NCBI GenBank assembly: GCA_017428055.1
Contig: JAFRRN010000022.1
Span: 1 to 43,906 of the forward strand
Direction: 5' to 3'
Length of the DNA stretch: 43,906 nt
Source: Prevotella sp.
GTDB taxonomy: Bacteria; Bacteroidota; Bacteroidia; Bacteroidales; Bacteroidaceae
The position numbers and the translations under genes were made by a program. Under the pieces are notes generated by a model, which searched no databases, was not told the DNA's origin, and was given only the letters and a program-made list of their open reading frames with translations. Every line of letters starts with the position of its first letter. The stretch's first letter is position 1. Shown here in pieces: positions 1,537-34,525 of the stretch.

Positions 1537-2268
1537 ATGAGTTATTTAACAGAAAAGGAAATATTCCAACGCACGGAGTTGCTCATCGGCAGCGATGCCC
1601 TGGCACGGCTACGGCAACTCCGTGTCATCATCTTCGGCGTGGGTGGCGTGGGTAGCTGGTGCGCCGAGAGCCTCGTGCGCTCGGGTATCGGCAGCCTTAC
1701 CATCGTCGATAGCGACCATGTATGTGCATCAAACATCAACCGCCAACTGATGGCAACCACCGAGACGGTGGGGCTGGCCAAGGTGGATGTGCTCCGCCAA
1801 CGCCTCCTCACCATCAACCCCTCCGCCGAGATCATCCCACTCCAACGGAGATTCAACGCCGAGACCGCCGACTCATTCGACCTTGCGGGCTATGACTACA
1901 TCATCGATGCCATCGACTCGTTGAAAGACAAGATGCTACTCATCGAGATGGCATGTGACACCAAGGCGCAATTCTTCTCGTCTATGGGGGCGGCAAGGAA
2001 GATGGATCCCACGCACATACAAGTGGATGAGTTCTGGAAAGTGCATGGCGACCCACTCGCCCGCACCCTCCGCAAGCGGTTCAATCAGCAAGGAAGACTC
2101 CCTTCCCGCAAGTTCCAGTGTGTCTTTTCAGATGAATTGTTGCCCAACCAAGGTGCCCCCACCGACACCGTGAACGGCACCCTGGCACACATCACCGCCA
2201 TCTTCGGTTTCATGTTGGCGGGACAGGTCATCAAGGATGCCGTAGCACGATGCTCCCAAAAGACATGA
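1537..2268 (+). CDS. tcdA: tRNA threonylcarbamoyladenosine dehydratase (TcdA/CsdL type)
   Basis: This 243-residue E1-like enzyme of the ThiF/MoeB/HesA fold has a Rossmann nucleotide-binding motif at residues 34-40 (GVGGVGS), the following WCAESL, an acidic VDSD at 57-60 and the NINRQ motif at 66-70. The SSMGAARKMDPT segment and the overall length match TcdA rather than MoeB or ThiF. TcdA uses ATP to cyclise t6A37 of ANN-decoding tRNAs to the hydantoin ct6A. The frame is open from 1492, but family proteins begin close to the EKEIFQRTELLIG segment, so the ATG at 1537 is preferred. The gene is monocistronic in appearance, with a repeat-filled spacer upstream and a partial copy of a dispersed repeat beginning 9 nt after its stop. 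Confidence 0.9.
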   Translation: MSYLTEKEIFQRTELLIGSDALARLRQLRVIIFGVGGVGSWCAESLVRSGIGSLTIVDSDHVCASNINRQLMATTETVGLAKVDVLRQRLLTINPSAEIIPLQRRFNAETADSFDLAGYDYIIDAIDSLKDKMLLIEMACDTKAQFFSSMGAARKMDPTHIQVDEFWKVHGDPLARTLRKRFNQQGRLPSRKFQCVFSDELLPNQGAPTDTVNGTLAHITAIFGFMLAGQVIKDAVARCSQKT

Positions 2269-2276
2269 AAAATCAT

Positions 2277-2345
2277 GACAAAAAGACCATCGCGAAAAAT
2301 CTTGAAATAGAAATCACAGGGGGATAAAATGTCCCTTTCGCCCAC
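2277..2345 (+). repeat. Partial third copy (C) of the ~370-bp dispersed element
   Basis: The first 38 nt match the terminus of the copy at 33006 at 31 positions by hand count, sharing GACAAAA, GACC, TCG, GAAAA and GAAATAGAAAT. Similarity fades after about 2330. As with the other copies, the GACAAAA end faces the 3' end of a gene (here tcdA). The remainder of the element appears lost or replaced by the gene remnant that follows. Confidence 0.65.
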
Positions 2346-14780: not shown

Positions 14781-15977
14781 ATGTCTCTAAGAGAAAGATA
14801 CACCAGCTTCAAGCAATGGCAACGCCAGCCAGTACAATACAGCGAAAGCCAGGAACAACACAAGTGCAACAACTGCGGCAGGGTCTTCACGGACAACTTC
14901 TGTCCCACTTGCGGGCAAAAAGCCACCGTGGGACCCGTCACATGGGATAGCATCCGACAGGGCGTGATGGACCTCTGGGGCATGGGAACACGCTCTTTGC
15001 CCTACACCATCTGGCAACTATTTGCCCGCCCGGGCTATCTCATCGGCGACTATATCAGCGGTCGGCGTCAGATTAGCTTCCCCCCTGTCAAGATGTTGGT
15101 CATCGTCGCCCTCGTCACTTACTTGGTAAGTAGCCTATGGGGAGTGGACATCATGGGGGGAGATGAGGGGATGGTAGGGCTCAGCGATGATGAAAGGTCT
15201 CTCTTAAATTCATTCTCCCGATGGCTCTCGAAGCATTACGACTGGGCGAGCCTTTTCATCTTCATGATGATGGTGCTGCCCACTTACATCGTGTTCCGCT
15301 ACGCCCCACGCAATCCACACCACACCCTTCCCCAAGGGTTCTTTATCCAAGTGTTCAACAGCACACAATTCCTTTGTCTCATGGTGTTATGGAGTATCAT
15401 CATCAAACAGACGGGTTTTTACTATGACATAACCACTACGGCAACCCTCTTTGTCATTCCCGTACTCCTTTTCTACAACTACAAGCAGCTCTTTGGCTAT
15501 GGATTTTGGGGTACGTTATGGCGCATGAGCGTCTGTTGGTTGCTTTGGGTACTCACTGTTCTTATCGTGAACATCATCGACTCCATTATCATCGACATCC
15601 GTTACCATACTGGGCTGCAAGAATCCGCAGTGGACATACATGCCCTATCGACCTGTGTCATCTTGTTCGCCTATGTCGCATTCTACACCAATATCATCAA
15701 CATGAGTGGCAAGAGGGGCAAAAGGCAACAAGAAGGAAAGGGCATCAAGCGTCTATTCGCGATAACGGTGACGGCAATCATCCACACCACTATGGCTCTC
15801 GTCTTCATAAGAAGTATTTTTACAACTATCGCCCGCAACGACACGACTTATTGCAAGGTAGCCGCCATCACCCTTGTCATCTTTGCCATCACGGGCTATT
15901 ACCTCTTTTCGACATATAGGAAATGGAAAAAAACAAATAACGAAAAACCAAGCGGACAAGAAGGGGGAAGCGACTGA
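14781..15977 (+). CDS. DUF3667-type zinc-ribbon membrane protein
   Basis: The 398-residue protein begins with a cytoplasmic zinc ribbon (CNNCGRVFTDNFCPTCG, Cys29, Cys32, Cys41 and Cys44). The conserved DUF3667 stretch with TIWQLFARPGYLIGDYI and RRQISFPPVKM follows, and then about eight hydrophobic segments, including near residues 95-117, 152-172, 245-270 and 328-350. It has no signal peptide and ends in a hydrophilic Lys/Glu/Gly tail. The family is widespread in Bacteroidota and its biochemical role is unknown. Here the gene is alone, divergent from the efflux operon and convergent with the CCA-adding enzyme, with a structured repeat element starting 5 nt after its stop. No further inference about function is justified. 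Confidence 0.85.
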   Translation: MSLRERYTSFKQWQRQPVQYSESQEQHKCNNCGRVFTDNFCPTCGQKATVGPVTWDSIRQGVMDLWGMGTRSLPYTIWQLFARPGYLIGDYISGRRQISFPPVKMLVIVALVTYLVSSLWGVDIMGGDEGMVGLSDDERSLLNSFSRWLSKHYDWASLFIFMMMVLPTYIVFRYAPRNPHHTLPQGFFIQVFNSTQFLCLMVLWSIIIKQTGFYYDITTTATLFVIPVLLFYNYKQLFGYGFWGTLWRMSVCWLLWVLTVLIVNIIDSIIIDIRYHTGLQESAVDIHALSTCVILFAYVAFYTNIINMSGKRGKRQQEGKGIKRLFAITVTAIIHTTMALVFIRSIFTTIARNDTTYCKVAAITLVIFAITGYYLFSTYRKWKKTNNEKPSGQEGGSD

Positions 15978-15981
15978 ATTT

Positions 15982-16346
15982 GTCAAATAAAAGTCACGGA
16001 TTGAGCCTCCGTGGCTGCGTTATTTGCCACCAACCTCTCCTTTGGTCGGAAATAACCCCGTTTTTCCGCATTTTCTTAACTTGCTGAATGCCAACTACTT
16101 GCATTTTTAAGGCATCATTTACCGCCCGTAAACGCGGCATTTTAACACTTTTTGGGGGGCATCCGCGCCCCACAAATGCCCCATTTACGAATGGCGGATG
16201 TGGCATCCGCCGGCGACGGATGCCCCCCAAAAAATGTTAAATGGATATTTTCGCCCGGATTTTCCGGATTTCTCGGAATATCCGGATGATTCGGTAAACA
16301 ATAATCAACCTATTTCGCGGATTTTCACGGAGGTGCTTTTGTCAAG
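15982..16346 (-). repeat. Dispersed intergenic element, copy A (365 bp)
   Basis: This fills the spacer between the converging DUF3667 and cca genes. It is homologous, in opposite orientation, to the copy at 33006-33378. One end matches at 66 of 83 positions by hand count, including the shared GCGTTATTTGCC and CCTTTGGTCGGAAA. The other end aligns over 115 nt without gaps. The centre holds an inverted repeat with 22-nt arms (16144-16165 and 16217-16238) differing at one position, around a 51-nt loop that contains a second perfect hairpin, GGCGGATG-TGG-CATCCGCC (16193-16211). Small open frames across it are not convincing genes. The GACAAAA end lies 8 nt from the cca stop. Confidence 0.85.
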
Positions 16347-16354
16347 AAAATTCA

Positions 16355-17812
16355 TCAAGAAACGACAAGCCCCATGTCGCGTGCCTTCTCCAATAAGAGC
16401 TTCATCAGCGGCTCACGCTCATTGGCCACTTGGTTGTCGAGCACCGCGTCTTTCATCACTTGCTTGAGCATACCCACCTCCCTTCCGGGCGGTAAGTGGA
16501 ACAATTCCATGATCTCGTTGCCGTCGATGCAGGGCTGGAGGAGCCGTTTGTAGTCGCGCTGCTTGAGGTCTTCGAGTTTCTCGCGTACCTTTTTGAAGTT
16601 GTCGAGAAACATCTGCTTGCGCTGGCTGTTCTTGCTGGTGATGTCTGCCTCGCAGAGGAGCATCAAGTCGTCGATGTCATCACCCGCATCGTTGAGCAGC
16701 CGACGCACCGCGCTGTCGGTCACTTCGGCATCGGCGATGGCGATGGGTCGCATGTGCAAGTCCACCAACTTTTGCACATACTTCATCTTCATGTCAAGGG
16801 GGAGTTTCAAGCGACGGAAGATATTGGCGACCATCTTGGCACCTATGTAGTTGTGGTTGTGGAAAGTCCAACCCAAAAGTGGGTCCCAACGCTTGCACTT
16901 GGGCTTGCCGATGTCGTGCAGGAGTGCCGCCCAGCGGAGCCAGAGGTTCTCTCCGCCGCTCTTGACGACATTCTCCAGCACCTCCAACGTGTGGTAATAA
17001 TTATTCTTATGCGACTTGCCATTGCGGGTCTCCACCACGTCGAGGGCGCACAATTCGGGCAGGAGGATGTCTAACAGCCCACTCTCGCGCAGGTAATAGA
17101 ATCCTTTGCTGGGAAACGCCGCCAAAAGAATCTTGTTTAACTCCTCCTGAATGCGCTCGCCACTGATGATGCGGATGCGCTCGGCATTGCGCCGAATGGC
17201 ATCAAAAGTCTCCTCCTCAATATAAAAACCCAACTGGGTGGCAAAGCGGATGCAGCGCATCATACGCAGGGGGTCATCGTCAAACGTGACTTCAGGGTCA
17301 AGGGGTGTGCGGATGATGCCGTCTTCCATATCGGAAAGACCATCGAAAGGGTCCACCAACTCGCCAAACCGACCCTTGTTGAGGCACACGGCAAGGGCGT
17401 TGATGGTGAAATCGCGGCGGTTCTGGTCATCCTCCAACGTGCCGTCTTCCACAATGGGTTTGCGAGAGTCGTGACTGTAACTCTCCCTCCGCGCACCGAC
17501 AAACTCCACCTCCACCTCGCGGCGACCATCGCCGTCACGCTGCCAAAACTTCACCTGGGCGGTGCCAAAGTTGCGGAAAACAGACAGGTGCGCCTTCCTG
17601 CCCAGCCGCTCCTTGAGCATCTCTGCCACGCGAATGCCGCTGCCCACCACCACGACATCAATGTCGTTGGTAGGCCTTTCAAGAAACAAGTCACGCACAT
17701 AGCCTCCCACGACATAGCATTCCACGCCCAAGGTGTCTGCCACATCGGAGATTTTCAGGAAAATATCATGGTTGAGAATTTGCGCCAAGTCGGCATCGCT
17801 CAGGTATTTCAT
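16355..17812 (-). CDS. cca: CCA-adding tRNA nucleotidyltransferase with HD domain
   Basis: The 485-residue enzyme builds or repairs the 3' CCA end of tRNAs. Its class II nucleotidyltransferase head has VVGGYVRDLFLERPTNDID with the catalytic Asp50 and Asp52. An RRDFTINALA motif, the DDPLRMMRCIRFATQLGF segment and the ERIQEELNKIL tail of the nucleotide-binding region follow, and then an HD domain with LLHDIGKPK. That composition fits bacterial CCA-adding enzymes with an HD phosphohydrolase domain. Poly(A) polymerase is less likely given the HD domain. It is monocistronic. A candidate -7 box lies about 26 nt upstream. Its 3' end abuts copy A of the dispersed repeat, which may supply the 3' processing or termination signal. 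Confidence 0.92.
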   Translation of the reverse strand: MKYLSDADLAQILNHDIFLKISDVADTLGVECYVVGGYVRDLFLERPTNDIDVVVVGSGIRVAEMLKERLGRKAHLSVFRNFGTAQVKFWQRDGDGRREVEVEFVGARRESYSHDSRKPIVEDGTLEDDQNRRDFTINALAVCLNKGRFGELVDPFDGLSDMEDGIIRTPLDPEVTFDDDPLRMMRCIRFATQLGFYIEEETFDAIRRNAERIRIISGERIQEELNKILLAAFPSKGFYYLRESGLLDILLPELCALDVVETRNGKSHKNNYYHTLEVLENVVKSGGENLWLRWAALLHDIGKPKCKRWDPLLGWTFHNHNYIGAKMVANIFRRLKLPLDMKMKYVQKLVDLHMRPIAIADAEVTDSAVRRLLNDAGDDIDDLMLLCEADITSKNSQRKQMFLDNFKKVREKLEDLKQRDYKRLLQPCIDGNEIMELFHLPPGREVGMLKQVMKDAVLDNQVANEREPLMKLLLEKARDMGLVVS

Positions 17813-32936: not shown

Positions 32937-33005
32937 TCATATAAAAACACATAACCCCATACGTTGAGCAATAGGATTTCCTGATTAAATGATGTGAAAA
33001 AAGCG

Positions 33006-33378
33006 GACAAAATGACCTTCGGGAAAAGTTGCGAAATAGAAATGCATGGGGTGGATATATGGTCGGAAAAACCCGAATTCTCCTATTATTCAGAGTCAAT
33101 ATATGCGTTTAACATTTTTTCTGTGGCATTTATCGGTGATAACCGTATGGGTTATCGCGCATCAATGTGGCATTTGTCACGGATAAAGGTATCAGAAAAA
33201 ACGTTAAAATGCCGCATTTGGGAATGAAAAAGGAAGCATGAAAAACGTAGAATCTGCGAAAGCGATTGATTTTCAGCATATTATAAAACATGCAAAAAAC
33301 GGGGGTCTTTCCGACCAAAGGCAAGGTTGGAGGCAAATAACGCAACCATGAAGACCCAATTCGTGACAAAATCTTGAC
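33006..33378 (+). repeat. Dispersed intergenic element, copy B (373 bp)
   Basis: Homologous to copy A in reverse orientation and occupying most of the 613-bp spacer between fumarase and the methyltransferase. The ends align with A as described there. The centre keeps an inverted repeat (AACATTTTTTCTG at 33111-33123 with CAGAAAAAACGTT at 33193-33205, one mismatch) around a 69-nt loop that contains the hairpin GATAACC-GTATG-GGTTATC (33138-33156). The GACAAAA end faces the 3' end of the fumarase gene. A 37-codon frame (33238-33351) shares SDQR-x-GW-x-QITQP with a frame in copy A, but this probably reflects nucleotide homology. Confidence 0.85.
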
Positions 33379-33405
33379 TTTTCCATCAAATATCTTCCCA
33401 TAGTG

Positions 33406-33437
33406 TTTGGCGTTGGCAGGGGTTTTTCGTATTTTTG
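33406..33437 (+). promoter_or_regulatory. Promoter of the adenine methyltransferase gene
   Basis: TTTG at 33406-33409, a 20-nt spacer and TATTTTTG at 33430-33437 match the Bacteroidota consensus. The predicted leader is about 45 nt. Its position rules out the upstream start at 33407 and supports the ATG at 33488. Confidence 0.7.
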
Positions 33438-33487
33438 CATCGGGGGTATTCCTCCCAATAGAAAAACAATTAACGACCGACCGCATA

Positions 33488-34525
33488 ATGGCAAACAAGA
33501 ACCTCAATGCTGCCAAAACAGCCAAGAAAGACGAATTCTACACGCAGTTGTCTGACATCAATTGTGAAATGAGACACTATCGGGTACATTTCCGTGGGAA
33601 GACAGTGCTATGCAATTGCGACGACCCAAGGGTATCCAACTTCTTCACTTACTTCGCTTACAACTTCGAGTTTCTCGGCTTGAAGCGGCTCATCACCACT
33701 TGCTACAAGAATCAAGACATGGACCTCTTCAGCCAAAACAAGAGCGAGAAGGCGATATACTTGATATACGACGGTGACAAGAACGGCAACAACATCCCCG
33801 ACCCGGAGGAGATAGGCATCCACCCTTTGAAAGGCGACGGCGACTTTCGTAGCCAAGAGTGCATCGAACTGCTTAAGCAAGCGGACATCGTGGTGACCAA
33901 CCCACCCTTCTCCTTGTTCCGTGAATACGTGGCACAATTGATGGAATATGACAAGAAATTCTTGATTATCGGTAGCCAGAATGCCGTGAAATACAAGGAG
34001 ATATTCCCCTTGTTCATGCAAAACAAGATGTGGCTTGGTAACAACTCTGGCGATATGTCATTCAAAGTTCCACAAGAATATGAGCCAAGGGAAACGAGAT
34101 TTTGGCAAGACGAGACATGGCAGAAATGGCGTAGTATGGGGAATATCTGTTGGTTTACAAACCTTGAAATCCAGAAGAGGTATGAAGACATCATCCTTTA
34201 CAAACATTACACTCCCGAAGAATACCCTAAATACGACAATTACGATGCGATTGAGGTTAGCAAGACCGACGAGATACCCGAAGATTATGATGGATTGATG
34301 GGAGTTCCCATCACTTTTATGGATAAATACAACCCTAACCAATTTGAAATAGTTGCCCTTGCAGACAGGGATTGCCCACTATGTACGAAGAAATATACGG
34401 CTGCCGACGGTAAGAATTACAGTGATTTGAACCGAAATGCCGTAATCATCAAGAATGGTCAATATAAATCCCTCTACACACGCATCATCATTCGCAACAA
34501 GCATCCCCATAAATCCTGTATATAA
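33488..34525 (+). CDS. EcoRI-family adenine-specific DNA methyltransferase, orphan
   Basis: A 345-residue member of the EcoRI methylase family (M.EcoRI-type adenine methyltransferases). It has the N-terminal NAAKTAKKDEFYTQLSDI, a SAM-binding-like VLCNCDDPRVSNFF (residues 40-53), the catalytic motif IVVTNPPFSLF (NPPF at 138-141), GSQNAVKYKEIFP and the family-typical NICWFTNLE and YTRIIIRNK near the end. It should methylate adenine within a palindromic site. No restriction endonuclease gene is adjacent: upstream is the repeat and downstream is gene-free spacer. The last residues differ from a repeated NKHP-coding stretch 45 nt downstream, hinting at a rearranged C terminus. It looks like a recent accessory gene between housekeeping loci. 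Confidence 0.88.
   Translation: MANKNLNAAKTAKKDEFYTQLSDINCEMRHYRVHFRGKTVLCNCDDPRVSNFFTYFAYNFEFLGLKRLITTCYKNQDMDLFSQNKSEKAIYLIYDGDKNGNNIPDPEEIGIHPLKGDGDFRSQECIELLKQADIVVTNPPFSLFREYVAQLMEYDKKFLIIGSQNAVKYKEIFPLFMQNKMWLGNNSGDMSFKVPQEYEPRETRFWQDETWQKWRSMGNICWFTNLEIQKRYEDIILYKHYTPEEYPKYDNYDAIEVSKTDEIPEDYDGLMGVPITFMDKYNPNQFEIVALADRDCPLCTKKYTAADGKNYSDLNRNAVIIKNGQYKSLYTRIIIRNKHPHKSCI

What the first reader, a model, noticed from the sequence alone, without database searches (positions are those of the whole stretch)
15982..16346. Dispersed ~370-bp intergenic element with two long inverted copies and one partial copy
Copy A (15982-16346) and the reverse complement of copy B (33006-33378) are homologous along their length. 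By hand, 66 of 83 positions match at one end. The other end is 115 nt in both copies without a gap, conserved at its two edges and diverged in the middle. A third partial copy at 2277-2345 matches B at 31 of its first 38 positions. Divergence of about 20 percent or more at the conserved parts says these are old copies, not assembly duplicates. No transposase is encoded, so this is either a non-autonomous mobile element, a structured RNA family, or a 3'-end signal. I cannot tell whether it has been described.
Basis: seen in the sequence. Interest (0 to 1): 0.75.

Follow-up and report, generated by a model that had tools for sequence, protein, structure and literature searches.

The report
Brick-cored dispersed intergenic DNA element
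The repeat is one of about sixty copies of a roughly 0.36-kb, probably mobile DNA element without a recognisable protein, whose ends recur in a few other species of the genus while its repeat-built middle differs, and whose lengths vary almost only in steps close to one turn of the DNA helix.

Summary
Anatomy: ~150-bp leader (WWW-TGTCAA-N7-TCACGAAA...), a core of ~22-bp palindromic bricks, a ~45-nt stretch random in sequence but nearly fixed in length, and a ~60-bp tail (CTATTTC-N20-TTTTGTC..TTTCAT). Copies average 59% identity (maximum 79%, 47 copies), yet all 61 spans fall at 339/340, 351/352, 360-363, 372-374, 382-384 or 402/404 bp, steps of ~10.7 bp. A leader profile not used to find them recovers the family in other species of the genus (12/13, 17/18, 7/7, 1/1, 2/4 loci; 0/4 in G215; 0/44 controls); the core profile recovers none. 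Ends are shared, bricks are species-specific. No fixed-offset target duplication, autonomous copy, mobilising enzyme or empty site was found. Best reading: a non-autonomous mobile element whose ends must synapse in helical register. Main rival: a maintained protein-binding site; at least eight of 109 neighbouring genes are restriction-modification genes, each with the element upstream, but this was not seen in other species. Closest published kinds: BrickBuilt, BOX.

The parts
15977..16362 (+). Copy A, whole element (leader, brick core, variable stretch, tail)
   Evidence: Alignment of 47 copies and end information profiles; 361/362-bp length class
15977..15999 (+). A: left end, WWW-TGTCAA-AT-rich 7 nt-TCACGG; begins at the stop codon of the DUF3667 gene
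16042..16102 (+). A: inner leader: TTGG..GAAATAACCCCGTTTTT motif, then gapped dyad TAA-N5-TGA-N4-CA-N5-TT(A/G)C; similar motifs seen by eye in other species
   Evidence: leader profile as a whole:
16140..16241 (+). A: central long palindrome made of about three 22-bp dyad-symmetric bricks (GGCATCCG..CGGATGCC type), bounded by TTTTAACACTTTTTGG / CCAAAAAATGTTAAA
   Evidence: (reverse-strand self match of query 164-264)
16261..16306 (+). A: variable stretch, 34-36% mean column identity among 47 copies but nearly constant length (approximate limits)
16310..16362 (+). A: tail, CTATTTC-N20-TTTTGTC-AAGAAAATTCATC; overlaps the end of the PolyA_pol gene on the other strand
32987..33383 (-). Copy B, whole element; its left end is about 0.1 kb upstream of an EcoRI-type adenine methyltransferase gene, its right end beside the fumarase gene
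33108..33211 (-). B: central palindrome
2258..2345 (-). Copy C, tail-only fragment (CTATTTC..TTTTGTCATGATTTTTCAT) at the end of the ThiF-family gene

Best explanation
A long-lived family of non-autonomous, MITE-like mobile DNA elements. The ~0.36-kb unit is moved in trans by an enzyme encoded elsewhere (not identified; inferred). The enzyme and its helpers recognise the leader and the tail, which carry related sites (TTTTGTC followed by an AT-rich 7-10 nt stretch, plus a gapped dyad in the leader) in an arrangement that is neither a clean terminal inverted repeat nor accompanied by a fixed target duplication. The palindromic bricks and the variable stretch act as a spacer that holds the two ends on the same face of the helix, so that only copies of permitted length (steps of ~10.7 bp) synapse well and move, while brick sequence is free to turn over within each species. 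Shown: copy number, anatomy, ends, length classes, conserved ends with species-specific cores, no coding version among the copies inspected. Inferred: mobility itself, synapsis, trans mobilisation.
For: 61 full copies in all four gene arrangements (19 ++, 15 -+, 8 +-, 8 --, 11 with one side unknown). No DNA-level match to A in 39 relatives; patchy tail-motif counts over 398 genus genomes. A leader profile not used to find them scores in G136 12/13, G143 17/18, G266 7/7, G093 1/1, G045 2/4 loci and in 0/44 control loci (166 kb), while the core profile scores in none. Copies within G266 are 87-89% identical to one of them and in G136 74-87% pairwise, i.e. closer than in the own genome, as separate amplification would give. 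Spans: 61 copies, R=0.88 at 10.7 bp; less three bases for the different anchor, G143 gives 359-361 (12 of 18 copies measured) and G136 384 (5 of 13), matching own-genome classes. Smallest gap between copies 11 kb in the own genome and 16 kb in G143, simulation P=0.0009 and 0.003, as an insertion-immunity effect would give.
Against: No enzyme found: 14 tail-motif loci inspected hide no longer coding version; the genome's RAYT-type Y1 gene goes with other palindromes. No fixed-offset target duplication in 46 copies, and none seen by eye in 7 younger G266 copies. No empty site was shown. In the own genome all copies are old yet nearly all intact, odd for a dead mobile family. Length steps may largely be descent: brick gain or loss of 22 bp plus one old 10-bp indel. 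One shortened G136 copy (L114; 311 or 347 after correction) does not fit the classes, and 7 G136, 6 G143 and all 7 G266 copies were not measured. One neighbour is shared between species: a pectinesterase gene, 47% identical, lies on the same side in the same orientation 56 and 17 bp from the left end in own genome and in G215, a possible common old insertion, G215 being a borderline member. The spacing test is post hoc; a looser pattern gives a second hit 0.5 kb from a G143 copy, judged chance by eye, and G384, which failed the family test, has a 6.4-kb gap.
Confidence: 0.5

Rival explanations
1. Each copy is maintained by selection as a host site: a phased array of dyad-symmetric bricks binds a dimeric protein and forms a compact loop that regulates the adjacent gene (for example restriction-modification genes) or organises the chromosome. 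Mobility, if any, is ancient.
For: Copies diverge to 59% mean identity but keep length, ends and intactness. At least eight of 109 neighbouring proteins are RM genes (two EcoRI-type MTases, two MmeI, HindVP, N6_Mtase, two N6_N4_Mtase), all eight starting towards the element, against 63 of 111 neighbours overall. Two EcoRI-type MTase loci share DNA from the gene through the intergenic stretch into the element's left end (72% over 305 nt) although their elements are only 61% identical. Dispersal in own genome and G143. A pectinesterase neighbour shared with G215.
Against: Most genus members show no more tail motifs than control; apart from the pectinesterase case the compared neighbours share no position between species; brick sequence not conserved between species. 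RM excess not seen in 61 neighbour proteins of other species. Of families counted genome-wide only 2 of 8 PF01555 and 1 of 16 PF02384 genes are adjacent.
Confidence: 0.25
2. Site-specific recombination site: the TTTTGTC cores at both ends are attL/attR-like sites of a tyrosine-type recombinase; elements excise as minicircles, and gene cassettes such as RM genes can join at the cores.
For: Same-orientation TTTTGTC cores at both ends with imperfect inverted arms (TTTTGTC-N9..10-CACGAAA; TTTTGTC-N9-GACNNNA in G136; by eye); no target duplication; helical length classes expected for small circles; EcoRI-MTase junction at the core with dissimilar element bodies.
Against: Spacers of left and right cores within a copy do not agree (by eye); the outer flanks of the cores are themselves conserved, so they seem to belong to the element; no recombinase gene linked in the flanks scanned (25 most frequent families shown).
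Confidence: 0.12
3. A structured non-coding RNA gene family.
For: Consensus fold pairs 77% of cells (plus) or 82% (minus) against 37-45% for slid versions, with 128 and 83 two-sided changes against 42-67 (26 copies; structure derived from the same alignment).
Against: No Rfam match in the window; much of the pairing lies in a palindrome that pairs on either strand; core not conserved between species; random stretch of nearly fixed length; loose orientation.
Confidence: 0.08
4. Decayed remnants of a known protein-coding insertion sequence, or an assembly artefact.
For: Small size only.
Against: Intact ends and length classes in 61 copies; same ends in other species; 10 ORFs inside copies match no Pfam family; copies on dozens of contigs.
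Confidence: 0.05

Closest known systems
BrickBuilt MITE of Porphyromonas gingivalis (PMC4596501; outline with abstract and 12 passages read)
   Same: [quoted passage not shown] described from one species; number of bricks varies.
   Different: BrickBuilt has short terminal inverted repeats (GAGACC.../...GGTCTC type) matching IS5-family elements; here the ends are TGTCAA... and ...TTTCAT, bricks are ~22-bp palindromes, and the ends recur in several species with different bricks.
BOX elements of Streptococcus (PMC3049150; abstract and passages seen)
   Same: Modular: 5' and 3' modules around a variable number of central modules; many copies per genome.
   Different: That paper says BOX elements have TIRs (similar to ISSpn2) and cause target duplications; box sequences were not compared here.
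REP/BIME with RAYT (Y1) transposases (PMC2817692, PMC3733652; search listings only)
   Same: Palindromic intergenic repeats in high copy; a RAYT-type gene exists in this genome.
   Different: Unit is ~360 bp, not 20-40 bp; the genome's RAYT lies among another palindrome family.
Classical MITEs (as described in PMC4596501)
   Same: Size, high copy, intergenic, no transposase recognised.
   Different: No clean terminal inverted repeats and no fixed target duplication found.

Membership tests
MITE (features as given in PMC4596501) | 50-1000 bp, many copies, no transposase | tested here: met
   about 0.36 kb, 61 copies; no longer version in 14 tail-motif loci; 10 inside ORFs without Pfam match
MITE (features as given in PMC4596501) | Terminal inverted repeats | tested here: inconclusive
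   Only weak complementarity of subterminal motifs (ACGAAA with TTTTGT); the TGTC-type motifs at the two ends are in direct orientation
MITE (features as given in PMC4596501) | Target site duplication | tested here: not met
   Fixed offsets, windows of 3-10 bp, 46 copies paired against mispaired: best excess 0.17, outside the boundaries; copies are old, so decay is possible
BrickBuilt | GAGACC/GGTCTC-type IS5-like TIRs | tested here: not met
   Ends are TGTCAA... and ...TTTCAT, not the TIRs listed
BrickBuilt | Tandem ~23-nt bricks between unlike leader and tail | tested here: met
   22-bp units in own genome and G136, 21-bp in G143, read by eye; own-genome lengths differ by 22
BOX | boxA/boxB/boxC sequences | not tested
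   Sequences not fetched; only architecture compared
REP/RAYT | Same palindrome flanks the RAYT gene | tested here: not met
   RAYT at G000:C28 lies among ATGCCGTAGGCAT-type repeats; no element end motifs (one stray TTTTGTC), and BLAST matches only the flank part of one G136 library entry. In G143 a full element does lie about 0.7 kb from a RAYT gene
Rfam RNA families | Match at gathering score | tested here: not met
   0 matches in the window
Tyrosine-recombinase integrative element | Linked recombinase and matching core spacers | tested here: inconclusive
   No linked gene among families shown; spacers differ within copies

The most novel reading that the evidence does not exclude
The element is a DNA 'ruler' unit: two conserved ends must be joined in helical register, so selection keeps length in whole helical turns while almost everything between drifts or is replaced by species-specific palindromic bricks; such units were spread through the genome with local insertion immunity and now sit as phased nucleoprotein loops upstream of restriction-modification and other genes.
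Probability: 0.18. Interest if true: 0.8.

Novelty: new variant of a known kind. Interest (0 to 1): 0.55.

Why it matters
If the length classes reflect a physical constraint, natural sequence families can be used to read out the helical phase needed for end synapsis or looping in vivo, a property otherwise studied with engineered spacers (recalled). The design of conserved ends with a replaceable core across species gives a handle for finding the unknown machinery that moves or binds such elements, and the position upstream of RM genes is testable.

Tried and rejected
Rfam and tRNA scans of the window: nothing. Phage and plasmid collections with copy A: nothing; viral contigs with a tail pattern: nothing. 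A coding origin was rejected: the tail read backwards can be read as ATGAAAAAN..., but stops and shifted frames occur in several copies (by eye); 21 of 47 copies do hold an ORF of 80 aa or more lying largely inside, and 10 ORFs (nine of these and one overlapping B) match no Pfam family at E 0.01. Target duplications: none at fixed offsets; the best diagonal lay outside the element and I take it as chance. Autonomous copies: of 15 tail-motif loci inspected 14 were ordinary full-size copies and one (C14:29588) had no element features. RAYT/REP: strong Y1 hits (E below 1e-18) occur in 6 of 7 element genomes and 2 of 15 others, but own and G143 RAYT loci carry other palindromes, so I dropped it as the mobiliser, although the co-occurrence is unexplained. 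G384, G148, G363, G206 and G062 share the tail motif but failed all three profiles and are not counted; G190 resembles G384 and was not profiled; G155 proved to be another element with its own inverted repeats. G215 passed the tail (4/4) but missed the leader threshold (best 11.8 against 12). Empty-site search with one G266 copy and its flanks: none of the 39 other genomes matched the element part, but matches to the two flanking genes lie apart there, so no empty site. A DUF4294 neighbour shared by own genome and G266 is not a shared site: same side, opposite orientation. A pectinesterase neighbour shared with G215 may be one. The neighbour comparison used 46 of the 61 other-species neighbour proteins for BLASTP, plus other-species loci for TBLASTN.

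In one search the comparison of the two MmeI loci used the wrong side of one copy and says nothing. In one search the BLAST listing was cut before the own RAYT locus; it was rerun. Dropped before counts: of 52 listed places 3 were not fetched at first (C33 and C69 came in later through the tail motif), and 2 of 49 copies failed the end finder (C16_82277, no left end; C39_40146, CTATTAT instead of CTATTTC). GTCA and TTTGT were used to anchor the end profiles, so their own invariance is partly by construction. Neighbour genes come from a simple ORF picker (80-100 aa minimum) that sets aside ORFs overlapping the element.

Full report
Observation. Copies A and B are homologous end to end (223 of 387 aligned columns; local score 84, shuffle maximum 15), and C is a tail fragment. 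With A as query the window's own genome (4.2 Mb, 106 contigs) gave 59 matches and with B 60, reverse-strand self matches of the palindrome included. The tail motif occurs 53 times against one for the reversed control, the left-end motif 39 times against one. I aligned 47 BLAST-found copies with both ends and added 14 found by the tail motif: 61 full copies. None of 39 relatives matched copy A at DNA level.

Anatomy. Information falls to background within a few bases at both ends (46 and 48 copies). Left end: RWWW-TGTCAA-N7(AT-rich)-TCAC(G/A)AAA. The leader continues with a TTGGGCGAAAATAA..CCCGTTTTT-like motif and a gapped dyad TAA-N5-TGA-N4-CA-N5-TT(A/G)C. The centre is a long palindrome that matches its own reverse complement and is built of ~22-bp dyad-symmetric units. 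Next comes a stretch with only 34-36% mean column identity but nearly constant length, apart from a 10-bp-shorter class and one copy with a larger gap. The tail is CTATTTC-N20-TTTTGTC-AANATTTTTCAT.

Length classes. Copies are diverged (mean pairwise identity 59%, nearest neighbour 58-79%, 47 copies), yet the span from the left GTC to the right TTTTGTC takes only the values 339/340 (3 copies), 351/352 (9), 360-363 (33), 372-374 (8), 382-384 (6), 402 and 404 (2) in 61 copies; the phase statistic is R=0.88 at 10.7 bp, and 0.81 at 10.6 bp when each distinct length is counted once. Most steps are whole bricks (two turns) and one old 10-bp change (one turn), so descent explains part of it; the near absence of other indels at 40% divergence is what needs a constraint. 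After subtracting three bases for the different anchor, 12 of 18 G143 copies measured 359-361 and 5 of 13 G136 copies 384, although their cores are unrelated; one shortened G136 copy (311 or 347) fits no class; 6 G143, 7 G136 and all 7 G266 copies were not measured.

Family. The tail motif is rich in a few of 398 genus genomes (own 53; G384 30; G143 28; G136 14; G045 and G266 10; G215 5; four genomes with 4); 128 of 398 have at least one, but most of those have one to three, as reversed-pattern controls also do. To avoid circularity I built profiles from own-genome copies for leader, core and tail separately. The leader profile, not used to find the other loci, scored at least 12 in G136 12/13, G143 17/18, G266 7/7, G093 1/1, G045 2/4, G215 0/4 (best 11.8), G384 0/10, G148/G363 0/4, G206/G062 0/4, and 0/44 control loci of 166 kb (best 7.0). 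The tail profile scored in G136 13/13, G143 13/18, G266 0/7, G215 4/4, G093 1/1, the rest 0, controls 0/44. The core profile scored in none. So leader and tail are shared, bricks are species-specific; the units read by eye are 22 bp in own and G136 and 21 bp in G143. Copies are closer to each other within G266 (87-89% to one copy) and G136 (74-87% in BLAST pieces) than in the own genome, which fits separate amplification.

Context. Of 61 copies 19 lie between genes both running with the element, 15 between diverging genes, 8 between converging genes, 8 between genes both running against it, and 11 have one side unknown (simple ORF picker). Thus it is not a 3'-end signal. The smallest gap between neighbouring copies is 11 kb on 12 own contigs with two or more copies (15 gaps, fragment C included; simulation P=0.0009) and 16 kb in G143 (11 gaps, P=0.003, two contig lengths being minima). 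The test was devised after seeing the data; a looser pattern in G143 gives a hit 0.5 kb from a copy that I judge chance by eye, and G384, not a member, has a 6.4-kb gap.

Neighbours in other species. Comparing own-genome neighbours with other-species neighbours gave nine pairs checked for side and orientation. One agrees: a pectinesterase gene (47% identical) ends 56 bp before the left end in the own genome and 17 bp before it in G215. It may be an old shared insertion or coincidence; the other eight differ in side or orientation.

RM neighbours. Of 109 neighbouring proteins at least eight are restriction-modification genes: EcoRI-type MTase at B and C36, MmeI at C4 and C97, HindVP endonuclease at C83, N6_Mtase at C51, N6_N4_Mtase at C14 and C87 (tables show only the 25 most frequent families). 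In all eight the gene starts towards the element; overall 63 of 111 neighbours do. The genome is rich in such genes: 8 PF01555 loci (2 adjacent) and 20 PF02384 matches in 16 ORFs by my grouping (1 adjacent); totals for EcoRI, MmeI and HindVP types were not counted, so the excess is not calibrated. It was not seen in 61 neighbour proteins of other species, where single members matched AbiEi, PDC-S02 and Cas9 models. The B and C36 loci share DNA from the MTase gene to the element's left end (72% over 305 nt), while their elements are only 61% identical, 28 other copies being nearer to C36 than B is: either the bodies were exchanged or the association is very old.

Mechanism. I favour a mobile element moved in trans because distribution is patchy, insertion contexts are varied and each species has its own version. 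No enzyme was found; the RAYT gene of this genome goes with other palindromes, although Y1 genes co-occur with the element in 6 of 7 against 2 of 15 genomes. A structured RNA is less likely: pairing is real in the consensus (77-82% of cells against 37-45% when slid) but much of it sits in a strand-symmetric palindrome that is not conserved between species. A maintained host binding site is the strongest rival because copies are old but intact.

Known kinds. BrickBuilt of P. gingivalis has the same leader-bricks-tail plan but IS5-like terminal repeats that are absent here. BOX has the same modular plan. I found no description of this family in six paper searches, of which I saw the listings and opened two papers; subscription papers are mostly not held.

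Noticed in passing
L219 (G000:C28) 1-1100: A RAYT-type Y1 gene (157 aa; the only Y1 match in this genome) lies in a tandem array of ~78-bp repeats with ATGCCGTAGGCAT and GTAGCCAGCC palindromes; a close relative with the same kind of palindromes sits in G143 (L218). This looks like a separate REP/RAYT system.
   Followed up: partly
L218 (G143) 396-770: A full element copy lies about 0.7 kb from that RAYT gene in G143; I estimate the chance for one gene at roughly 2%.
   Followed up: no
L115-L124 (G384), L134-L136 (G190): Another dispersed repeat with 22-bp units (GCATTTAGCACCAAAACGC type) and CTATTTC-N19-TTTTGTC inside; about 30 copies in G384; not matched by leader, core or tail profiles in the 10 G384 loci tested.
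   Followed up: partly
L166, L173, L180, L187 (G155): Identical short elements with ends GTAACTACTCAGTCAT / ATGACTGAGTAGTTAC; looks like a separate classical MITE or IS end.
   Followed up: no
L164, L171, L178, L197-L200 (G266): Younger copies extend about 40 bp further at each end and carry the direct repeat ATTGTAAGCAC-N7..8-GAGTTTTC at both ends, with A-rich left and T-rich right flanks (by eye).
   Followed up: partly
window 33407-34525 and L004 1912-3018: Two EcoRI-type methyltransferase genes, 51% identical, each with an element just upstream.
   Followed up: partly
L151 1175-2155 and L165 657-1697: Pectinesterase genes of own genome and G215 each end close to an element's left end, same orientation.
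   Followed up: partly
own-genome contig ends (C39, C87, C16, C103, C29, C12, C67): Several copies lie only 0.2-0.8 kb from contig ends; whether another repeat breaks the assembly there was not examined.
   Followed up: no
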